DNA from: Patulibacter minatonensis DSM 18081
GTDB taxonomy: Bacteria > Actinomycetota > Thermoleophilia > Solirubrobacterales > Solirubrobacteraceae
Length of the DNA stretch: 64,000 bases
Direction of reading: 5' to 3'
NCBI RefSeq assembly: GCF_000519325.1
Contig: NZ_KI912613.1
Location: forward strand, 3,739,859 to 3,803,858
Shown here one piece after another: positions 42,236 through 47,102 of the stretch; within the stretch, counting starts at the first letter, position 1; the number at the start of each line of letters is the position of its first letter. Both the position numbers and the translations under genes were made by a program. The notes under the pieces were generated by a model, which saw nothing but the letters and a program-made list of their open reading frames with translations, did no database searches and had not been told where the DNA came from.

Positions 42236-43663
42236 GTGGCTGATTGGCGCTACGAGGAGCACCTGCGCTCGCCCGTCGGGCTGGCGGAGCTCCCGCCCAC
42301 GGGACACGACGGCGTCGCCGGCGGGGCCGCGTGCGGCGATCTCGTCCGCCTCGTGATCCGGGTGGAGGGCGATCGCGTCGCGTCCGCCGGGTTCGTCGCC
42401 GAGGGCTGCGGCGCCCTGACGGTCTGCGGCTCGGTGGCCTGCGAGCTCCTCGAGGACGCGACGGTCCGCGACGCCGCACGGATCTCGGTCGACGGCCTCG
42501 CGGAGGAGGTCGGGGGCCTGCACCCGGGCAAGCGCCACGCCGCGGAGCTCGTCGTCGACGCGCTGCACCGCGCCCTCGGCGCCGCGGTGGCCGCCGACGC
42601 CACGCCGTCCGGGGCGGAGCCCTCCGGCACGCTCGTCGCGATGAGCGGCGGCGTCGACTCGGCGGTCGCCGCGCTGAAGGCCGGCCCGGACGCCGTGGCC
42701 GTCACCCTCGAGCTGTGGCGGGACCCAGCGAACGACGCCGAGTCGTCGTGCTGCTCCCACTCCGCCGTCCGTCGTGCCCGCGACCTCGCGCACCGGATGG
42801 GCATGCCCCACCTGACCCTCGACCTGCGCGACGCGTTCCGCGACGGCGTCGTCACCCCGTGGATCGAGGACCACCGCGACGGCCTCACGCCGAACCCGTG
42901 CGTCCGCTGCAACGGGAACGTCCGCCTGGACGCGATGCTCGACCTCGCCGACCGCCTCGGCTGCGCGACGCTCACGACCGGCCACTACGCCCGGACGACC
43001 GACGACGGCCTCCTGCGCCTGGCCGTGGACCCCGGCAAGGACCAGGCGTACATGCTGAGCGCGCTGCGTCCGTCGTCCGTCGCCCGCATGCGCTTCCCGC
43101 TCGGGGCGCTCCTGAAGCCGCAGGTCCGCGCGCTGGCGGAGGAGGCCGACCTGCCCGTCGCCCGCACACCTGACTCGCAGGACCTCTGCTTCCTCGCGGG
43201 CACCGGGCGCTCGGCGTTCCTCGAGCGCCACGGCGGGCTCGTCGACCGGCCCGGCCCGATCCTCGACGCCGACACGGGGGAGACCCTCGGCGAGCACCAG
43301 GGCGCGCACCTCTACACGCTCGGACAGCGCCGCGGGCTCGGCGTGGGCGGCGGCACGCCGCGCTACGTCGTGGCCACCGACGTCGCCACGAACGTCGTCA
43401 CCGTGGGGCCCAAGGAGCGCCTGATGACCGACGAGGTCCGCCTGCGCGACGTCGTCCTGCACCGCGACGCGTGGCGCGTCGACGGCGTGAAGCTCCGCTA
43501 CCGCCAGCAGCCGCGCCGGGCCAGGGTGGTCGCGTCCCCCGAGACGGGCGTCAGCGGTCCGGGCACGGTGATCCTCGAGGAGCCGCTCCTCCAGGCCGCG
43601 CCGGGCCAGACGGCGATGCTGCTGGACGGCGACGTCGTCGTCGGCGTCGGCACGCTGGCCTGA
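42236..43663 (+). CDS. mnmA: tRNA 2-thiouridylase MnmA with N-terminal IscU-like domain
   Basis: A 475-residue fusion. Residues 1-115 match the NifU/IscU scaffold fold: ACGDLV (Cys33), EGCGAL (Cys58) and LHPGKRHAAEL, where the third scaffold cysteine (HC in IscU) is alanine 102. Residues 130-475 are MnmA: PP-loop SGGVDS (137-142), TPNPCVRCN with the catalytic Cys222, and SQDLCF with Cys318. It thiolates U34 of tRNA for Lys, Glu and Gln. The GTG at 42236 follows a TACCCT box by 6 bases; longer open frames upstream are rejected. It is divergent from the acyl-CoA synthetase and convergent with the histidine kinase. Confidence 0.9.
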   Translation: MADWRYEEHLRSPVGLAELPPTGHDGVAGGAACGDLVRLVIRVEGDRVASAGFVAEGCGALTVCGSVACELLEDATVRDAARISVDGLAEEVGGLHPGKRHAAELVVDALHRALGAAVAADATPSGAEPSGTLVAMSGGVDSAVAALKAGPDAVAVTLELWRDPANDAESSCCSHSAVRRARDLAHRMGMPHLTLDLRDAFRDGVVTPWIEDHRDGLTPNPCVRCNGNVRLDAMLDLADRLGCATLTTGHYARTTDDGLLRLAVDPGKDQAYMLSALRPSSVARMRFPLGALLKPQVRALAEEADLPVARTPDSQDLCFLAGTGRSAFLERHGGLVDRPGPILDADTGETLGEHQGAHLYTLGQRRGLGVGGGTPRYVVATDVATNVVTVGPKERLMTDEVRLRDVVLHRDAWRVDGVKLRYRQQPRRARVVASPETGVSGPGTVILEEPLLQAAPGQTAMLLDGDVVVGVGTLA

Positions 43664-45974: not shown

Positions 45975-46090
45975 CGGCGCAGCGTACGCCCCGATGCTGG
46001 GAAGTTCCTGTGCCATCCCGAAGAGGCGGCGAAGAGCGGTTCCGCCGTACGGCTGTGGACGGCTCCCACCGGACGGAGCAGGATGCCCGC

Positions 46091-46564
46091 ATGTCCTCCG
46101 TCACCGTCCCGACCGACCAGCACGACTCCCGCGTCGCCCGCCTGCGGCGCGTCGCGATCCGGGTGGCGCTCCCCGCGCTCCTCCTCGCACCGCTCCTGAT
46201 CCCGCCGGCCGCCGACGCACGCACGTTGCGCGGGAACAACGTCTACGCCTACGGGGACGGGAAGGTCAACTGCTACGTCGTGCACTACGGCGGAACCGGC
46301 ATCGAGTGCATGTCGCAGGCCGTGCCGTCCGGCGACGGCGACGGCTACCTCGCCCTGCGCCGGACGGGCCGGGCGCGGGTCGGGGCGCGCGGTGACTACC
46401 CGGGCTACGGCGGCACGCGCCGGAAGCTCCGGTCCGGCGACACCTGGCGCCCCGGTCACAGCGCCCGCGGCATCACGTGCGCCATCCAGCACGGCGTCGT
46501 GAAGTGCATCAACCGCAGCGGCCACGGCATCGCGCTCAGCCCGTCCGAGTACTACCGGTTCTAG
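46091..46564 (+). CDS. Small secreted DUF6636-like protein, copy A
   Basis: A 157-residue exported protein with a signal peptide (hydrophobic 32-42, ending PPAADA). The mature part has four cysteines in two pairs ([31 protein letters not shown]) and conserved [13 protein letters not shown] and NRSGHGIAL segments. It resembles DUF6636-type secreted proteins. Function is unknown. The next gene is a clear paralog. It is divergent from a two-component regulator, which may control it. Confidence 0.78.
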
Positions 46565-46622: not shown

Positions 46623-47102
46623 ATGACCCGCCGTCGCACTCCACGCCGACCGTCCACGATCGCCTCCCGGCGCCGCCCGCGAGGCCGCGCGCTGCTGCCG
46701 CTGCTCGCGGTCGTCCCGCTCGCCCTGCCCGCCGCGGCGGACGCGAGGACGGTGCGCTCGAACAACGTGTCCGCGTTCTCCGACAACGGCGTCAGCTGCC
46801 TGGTGGTCCGGCAGTTCAAGGGCGTCCCGAACCAGGGCATCGAGTGCTCCTCGCAGGCCGTGCCGCGCAAGGAGCTCGACGGGTACGTCGAGCTCCACCG
46901 CACGGGCCGGTCGAAGCTCGGCGAGCGCGGCGACTTCCCCGGCTACTCGGGGAAGGCGACGAAGCTCAAGGTCGGCGACGTCTGGCGTCCGGGCCACAGC
47001 GCGAAGGGCATCCGCTGCGAGTTCGAGAGCCAGGGCCTGCGCTGCAAGAACAGGAGCGGCCACGGCTTCGTGATCGAGCCCGAGGCGTTCCGGCGGTTCT
47101 AG
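46623..47102 (+). CDS. Small secreted DUF6636-like protein, copy B
   Basis: A 159-residue paralog of copy A with the same order of elements: signal peptide, ASAFSD-like start, two cysteine pairs (SCLVVRQFKGVPNQGIECS; IRCEFESQGLRC), GDFPGYSG, WRPGHSAKGI and NRSGHGFVIEPEAFRRF. The copies are only partly identical, so the duplication is not recent. The 58-base gap between them suggests one operon. Confidence 0.8.
   Translation: MTRRRTPRRPSTIASRRRPRGRALLPLLAVVPLALPAAADARTVRSNNVSAFSDNGVSCLVVRQFKGVPNQGIECSSQAVPRKELDGYVELHRTGRSKLGERGDFPGYSGKATKLKVGDVWRPGHSAKGIRCEFESQGLRCKNRSGHGFVIEPEAFRRF

What the first reader, a model, noticed from the sequence alone, without database searches (positions are those of the whole stretch)
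42236..42640. MnmA fused to an IscU-like domain that has lost one cluster cysteine
Seen: residues 1-115 match IscU/NifU-N with cysteines at 33 and 58 at the right spacing, while the third site (HCS in IscU) is HAA at 101-103. The MnmA part keeps its PP-loop and both catalytic cysteines (222, 318). Known: MnmA takes sulfur from a relay that begins at IscS; a dependence of tRNA thiolation on iron-sulfur clusters has been debated. Inference: the domain may dock a cysteine desulfurase or hold sulfur or a labile cluster next to the active site, replacing separate relay proteins.
Basis: partly seen in the sequence, partly recalled or inferred. Interest (0 to 1): 0.75.

Follow-up and report, generated by a model that had tools for sequence, protein, structure and literature searches.

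The report
tRNA-thiolating MnmA with built-in IscU-like domain
In a whole branch of bacteria the enzyme that puts sulfur on tRNA carries, in the same protein, a reworked copy of the iron-sulfur scaffold IscU, which probably docks the sulfur-supplying enzyme and may pass on its sulfur instead of building iron-sulfur clusters.

Summary
The ORF at 42236-43663 (+) encodes a 475-residue protein: an IscU-fold domain (1-118) joined by a short, fast-evolving linker to a complete MnmA (131-475). IscU positions C37/D39/C63/H105 are kept as C33/D35/C58/H101; C106 is Ala102. The window genome has no other MnmA.

It is no oddity of one genome. The fusion occurs across the window's class (Thermoleophilia, named loci) and in Rubrobacter. 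All 84 fused or split domains examined keep C33 and none keeps both H105 and C106 (His only 61, Cys only 13, neither 10). Twelve unfused IscU genes from the same phylum all keep C-D-C-H-C. The fusion probably arose from an iscS-iscU-mnmA operon, still present in relatives. The domain is under purifying selection as strong as that on MnmA.

Best explanation (inferred): the domain no longer assembles clusters. It docks a cysteine desulfurase and hands persulfide sulfur, probably through C33, to MnmA in cis. In the window genome the donor would be SufS, because IscS and TusA were not found. The nearest precedent is the SufE-like N-terminal domain proposed for Plasmodium MnmA. No description of this fusion was found in the papers searched.

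The parts
42236..43663 (+). Fused gene: IscU-like domain + MnmA (tRNA 2-thiouridine(34) synthase), 475 aa, GTG start, own stop
   Evidence: only full MnmA in the genome
42236..42589 (+). IscU-fold domain, residues 1-118
   Evidence: Pfam NifU_N 4e-15; IscU chains Z 17-20 on the predicted model; dN/dS 0.14-0.21
42332..42340 (+). C33-G34-D35: equivalents of E. coli IscU C37 and D39; C33 also equals the SufU acceptor cysteine
   Evidence: C33 in 84/84 domains, C33 and D35 in 40/40 Solirubrobacterales-type copies
42407..42409 (+). C58: equivalent of IscU C63
   Evidence: 40/40 in f1-f4
42530..42541 (+). K99-R-H101-A102: equivalents of IscU K103, H105 and C106; the third cysteine is replaced by Ala (GCC)
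   Evidence: H101 40/40; residue 102 is Ala 38/40, never Cys, in f1-f4
42590..42625 (+). Interdomain linker, residues 119-130
   Evidence: dN/dS 0.55-3.3 against congeners
42626..43660 (+). MnmA part, residues 131-475; PP-loop SGGVDS 137-142; C172-C173, C222xxC225 and C318 = C-type (CC-CxxC-C) pattern
   Evidence: NF001138 306 bits, TIGR00420 256.9 bits; motifs; Z 33-35 to solved MnmA

Best explanation
The N-terminal domain is an IscU that was fused to MnmA (shown by sequence, predicted fold and tree) and then gave up cluster assembly (inferred from the missing ligand). It keeps the surface that a cysteine desulfurase recognises and one invariant cysteine, C33. In the inferred mechanism the desulfurase docks on this domain and its persulfide sulfur goes to C33, which may sit on a metal bound by C33/D35/C58/H101 as in zinc-SufU. 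The sulfur then moves within the same protein to the MnmA active site (C318/C222, or a [4Fe-4S] cluster on C222/C225/C318) and from there to adenylated U34. In Rubrobacter-like relatives the donor would be the IscS encoded just upstream. In the window genome it would be SufS, the only clear desulfurase found. The domain thus replaces a Tus-type relay.
For: (1) Domain and fold. (2) Tree of 67 domains: fused copies separate from standalone ones with 99/99 support. (3) Both H105 and C106 kept in 0 of 84 fused/split domains; 12 of 12 standalone IscU keep both. The ISCU2 C138S variant (C138 = C106) is not persulfidated (PMC11021402), so cluster assembly is unlikely. (4) C33 invariant in 84/84, even in f9 and f12, where D35, C58 and H101 are lost; it equals the SufU acceptor, which is freed by zinc-ligand exchange (PMC11408855), and the most exposed IscU cysteine, nearest IscS (PMC2854127). 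(5) C33/D35/C58/H101 in 40/40 Solirubrobacterales-type copies; QM/MM puts Zn on C37, D39, C63, H105 without C106 (PMC4243993). (6) IscS gene directly upstream of the fused gene in f23, f10, f11 and of iscU-mnmA in f6, f29. (7) No TusA, no IscS-type hit; SufS and SufU present, SufS with HPHD, the position of the zinc-swapping His. (8) dN/dS like MnmA's. (9) SufE-like N-terminal domain proposed for Plasmodium MnmA, fed by SufS (PMC10219651).
Against: In human ISCU2 the acceptor is the residue that is missing here, and C69 (= C33) is not needed for persulfide transfer. f7 copies have a shortened N-terminal region without any of these cysteines, so in that lineage a relay through the domain cannot operate. 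Two f8 genomes (L129, L137) have an MnmA without the domain. The fused domain is closer to IscU than to SufU (Z about 20 against 14-15; SufU model score 24.3, cut-off 92.5), so a switch from IscS to SufS as partner is an inference.
Confidence: 0.5

Rival explanations
1. Docking only: the domain binds the desulfurase and places its mobile persulfide loop at the MnmA active site, but never carries the sulfur itself. The conserved metal site (C, D, C plus His or Cys) only stabilises the fold.
For: B. subtilis YrvO delivers sulfur to MnmA with no relay protein (PMC5372745). Metal stabilises IscU (PMC4243993). f7 has lost the cysteines but kept what looks like a remnant of the domain. One of H105/C106 is kept in 74 of 84, as expected for a four-ligand metal site.
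Against: C33 is kept in f9 and f12 even where the other ligands are gone, which a purely structural metal site does not explain.
Confidence: 0.23
2. The domain holds iron or a labile Fe-S cluster and either loads the C-type cluster site of MnmA or tunes MnmA to iron or oxygen.
For: The MnmA part has the CxxC-C pattern of MnmAs reported as [4Fe-4S]-dependent (PMC8584467). Four possible ligands remain. A [2Fe-2S] SufU from M. tuberculosis has been deposited (9dcl).
Against: The third cysteine is missing. f9, f12 and f7 lost the metal site while MnmA kept its own CxxC-C. Unfused MnmAs of the same phylum have the same CxxC-C pattern, so the pattern does not track with the fusion.
Confidence: 0.15
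3. A relic: the fusion is a frozen accident, and the domain now serves only MnmA folding or stability.
For: The domain is degenerate in f7, f9 and f12 and absent in two f8 genomes.
Against: In the window's own order C33, D35, C58 and H101 are invariant in 40/40 while the domain averages 56% identity to the window's; dN/dS of the domain is like that of the catalytic part.
Confidence: 0.1

Closest known systems
Apicomplexan (Plasmodium falciparum) apicoplast MnmA with SufE-like N-terminal domain (PMC10219651)
   Same: An acceptor-type domain is proposed N-terminal to MnmA, in a compartment where SufS is the desulfurase.
   Different: Called SufE-like there from bioinformatics; here the domain is an IscU/NifU_N homologue with metal-ligand residues, in bacteria, and fused next to an iscS gene in several lineages.
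Bacillus subtilis YrvO-MnmA
   Same: A cysteine desulfurase gene next to mnmA and no Tus proteins.
   Different: No fused domain; YrvO delivers sulfur directly to MnmA.
C-type MnmA of Thermus thermophilus (Shigi et al. 2020, via PMC8584467 and PMC11784392)
   Same: CC-CxxC-C cysteine pattern in the catalytic part.
   Different: No fusion is mentioned in the passages of these reviews that I read.
IscU / NifU_N scaffold
   Same: Fold, N-terminal helix, C-D-C-H residues, K103 equivalent.
   Different: Third cluster cysteine (C106) missing; covalently part of MnmA.
SufU zinc-dependent transpersulfurase
   Same: IscU fold used as sulfur acceptor; acceptor C41 = C33; zinc bound by C, D, C and a fourth residue.
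   Different: Scores far below the SufU model; fourth ligand would be His101 instead of Cys; not a separate protein.

Membership tests
MnmA (tRNA 2-thiouridine(34) synthase) | Whole-protein score above the curated cut-off | tested here: met
   NF001138 306 vs 284 bits; TIGR00420 256.9 vs 236.95
MnmA (tRNA 2-thiouridine(34) synthase) | PP-loop and the two catalytic cysteines | tested here: met
   SGGVDS 137-142, C222, C318; C222 and C318 invariant in 50 fused proteins
MnmA (tRNA 2-thiouridine(34) synthase) | MnmA fold | tested here: met
   2hma Z 34.6, 2deu Z 33.8 on the predicted model
C-type (Fe-S-dependent) MnmA | CC-CxxC-C cysteines | tested here: met
   C172-C173, C222xxC225, C318
C-type (Fe-S-dependent) MnmA | Binds an oxygen-sensitive [4Fe-4S] cluster needed for activity | not testable with these tools
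   needs purified protein
IscU scaffold | IscU / NifU_N fold and sequence | tested here: met
   NifU_N 56.5 bits, cut-off 22; IscU chains Z 17-20
IscU scaffold | Three cluster cysteines C37, C63, C106 | tested here: not met
   C33, C58, Ala102
IscU scaffold | Score above the IscU or NifU_clost equivalog cut-off | tested here: not met
   TIGR01999 43.4 vs 192.4; TIGR03419 58.3 vs 187.9
IscU scaffold | Assembles and transfers a [2Fe-2S] cluster | not testable with these tools
   needs purified protein
SufU | Score above the SufU cut-off | tested here: not met
   TIGR01994 24.3 vs 92.5; the genome's real SufU scores 101.7
SufU | Zinc ligands C-D-C-C | tested here: not met
   C-D-C-H-A in the fusion; C-D-C-K-C in the genome's SufU
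SufU | Accepts persulfide from SufS on the first cysteine | not testable with these tools
   needs a transfer assay

The most novel reading that the evidence does not exclude
An Fe-S scaffold became, by fusion with MnmA, an in-cis transpersulfurase for tRNA, in parallel with the SufE-like domain proposed for apicomplexan MnmA, and in the window's order it switched partner from IscS to SufS after IscS was lost. It would be a further class of sulfur relay for s2U34, in which scaffold and relay share one protein family.
Probability: 0.3. Interest if true: 0.72.

Novelty: new variant of a known kind. Interest (0 to 1): 0.55.

Why it matters
How sulfur reaches MnmA without Tus proteins, and whether s2U34 formation depends on Fe-S biology, are open and disputed (PMC11784392). 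Here the two machineries are joined in one polypeptide across a bacterial class, with the third cluster cysteine replaced in the window's lineage. That natural separation makes docking, sulfur relay and cluster supply testable in one protein with point mutants at C33, C58 and H101. It also warns that domain searches for IscU can mistake these fusions for scaffolds.

Tried and rejected
Oddity or frameshift of one genome: rejected, same architecture in many genomes and in named loci L149-L155 and L157. Pseudogene or decaying domain in the window lineage: rejected by dN/dS and invariant residues. A Solirubrobacterales-only trait: rejected (f23, f55, f16; Rubrobacter L157). Fusion linked to C-type MnmA only: no, unfused MnmAs of the phylum are C-type too. 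f7 remnant: the Foldseek rows shown for its model list no IscU chain, so its origin from IscU rests on profile alignment (74%, E 3e-6) and the order of strands and helices. Shigi 2020 is not held. Paper searches for the fusion found nothing.

Full report
WHAT IS THERE. The ORF at 42236-43663 (+) encodes 475 residues. Residues 25-114 match NifU_N (4e-15) and 133-473 match MnmA above its cut-off. It is the only full MnmA in the 5.52-Mb single-contig genome; the other PF03054 hit is a weak 44-position match. The genome's other NifU_N match is a separate protein that passes the SufU cut-off. AlphaFold2 gives pLDDT 94.3 and pTM 0.92. The N-domain matches IscU (A. fulgidus 4eb5 Z 20.6; human and E. 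coli about 19) better than SufU (14-15), and the rest matches MnmA (Z 33-35). The gene is flanked by genes on the opposite strand, so it looks monocistronic.

THE CLUSTER SITE. E. coli IscU C37, D39, C63, K103, H105 and C106 correspond to C33, D35, C58, K99, H101 and A102. In 40 copies of the window's order (f1-f4) C33, D35, C58 and H101 are invariant; residue 102 is Ala in 38 and never Cys.

DISTRIBUTION. A class sample of 299 genomes gave matches in 287; in f1-f5 and f8-f11 the listed matches mostly run from the IscU-like part through MnmA in one open frame. In the phylum sample the same holds for f23, two f16 genomes and one f55 genome. Named loci include Solirubrobacterales, Thermoleophilaceae, other Thermoleophilia and Rubrobacter, all fused where the match covers the domain. 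Family labels f1, f2 and so on are the search tool's own; genomes behind them are unnamed.

A RULE. At C37/D39/C63/H105/C106, 84 domains (83 fused, one, L100, split from MnmA by a stop) read C-D-C-H-x (f1-f5, f23), C-D-C-x-C (most f8, all f10, f11, f55), C-G-C-H-x (f16), or have lost more (two f8, f9, f12). His only 61, Cys only 13, neither 10, both 0. Twelve standalone IscUs of the same phylum, ten of them directly upstream of mnmA, all read C-D-C-H-C. C33 is present in all 84. f7 has a shortened N-terminal region without these cysteines, probably a remnant, not certain. A tree of 67 domains separates fused from standalone with 99/99 support, compatible with one fusion. Its inner order is partly unresolved, and the ligand columns were not removed from it.

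ORIGIN. In f6 and f29, and in the Bacillota and Dehalococcoidia loci, canonical iscU lies just upstream of mnmA; in f6 and f29 an IscS-type gene precedes it. In f23, f10 and f11 that IscS gene lies directly upstream of the fused gene. An iscS-iscU-mnmA operon followed by fusion of the last two genes is the simplest history (inference).

SULFUR SUPPLY IN THE WINDOW GENOME. No TusA. A type I IscS query finds nothing at 1e-30 in the window genome; within f1-f4 only G103 and, weakly, G178 match (the list of genomes without a match is cut). The PF00266 hits include one clear SufS (484 bits, cut-off 475), one SufS-like protein below the cut-off and a more distant PLP enzyme that passes no cut-off. 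SufS carries HPHD, where SufU-type SufS has the zinc-swapping His (PMC11408855; the exact placement in this protein is my reading).

SELECTION. Against five congeners dN/dS is 0.14-0.21 for the domain, 0.10-0.22 for MnmA and 0.55-3.3 for the 12-residue linker.

MECHANISM. Shown: homology, predicted fold, conservation, gene order. Inferred: desulfurase docking, persulfide on C33, transfer to MnmA. Cluster assembly is unlikely, because ISCU2 accepts sulfur on C138 (= C106) and C138S accepts none (PMC11021402). SufU shows that the same fold can relay sulfur through the first cysteine with zinc, and zinc can sit on C37, D39, C63 and H105 without C106 (PMC4243993). Retention of C33 after loss of the other ligands (f9, f12) favours a relay over a purely structural metal. 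The f7 lineage shows that the relay is not universal. The catalytic part has the CC-CxxC-C pattern described for cluster-dependent MnmA (PMC8584467; PMC11784392).

NOVELTY. No paper found describes this fusion; the library is partial. The SufE-like domain proposed for Plasmodium MnmA (PMC10219651) is the nearest precedent, so I rate this a new variant of a known kind.

Noticed in passing
L116 and L100 (Rubrobacter-like genomes G496, G359): IscU-like part and MnmA are separate ORFs here, yet the third cysteine is already lost: either a gene split, a sequencing error or a pre-fusion state.
   Followed up: partly
L129, L137 (G028, G022, family f8): MnmA without the IscU-like domain inside a family where other members have it; both genomes have IscS-type genes. 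Probably secondary loss.
   Followed up: partly
L107 (G330, family f34), MnmA N-terminus: About 165 residues before MnmA read like a cysteine-poor, degenerate IscU-like domain in a small genome outside the class.
   Followed up: no
L104, L105 (family f16): Fused MnmA that lacks the CC motif but keeps CxxC-C; among the most divergent fused domains in the tree.
   Followed up: no
G000:C1:1915010-1916104 (L006): A second SufS-like desulfurase, below the SufS cut-off (267.9 of 475 bits); its role is unknown and it could be an alternative donor.
   Followed up: partly
window 46010-46564 and 46623-47102 (+): Two neighbouring ORFs encode clearly similar small, apparently secreted proteins with conserved cysteines (tandem paralogues).
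   Followed up: no
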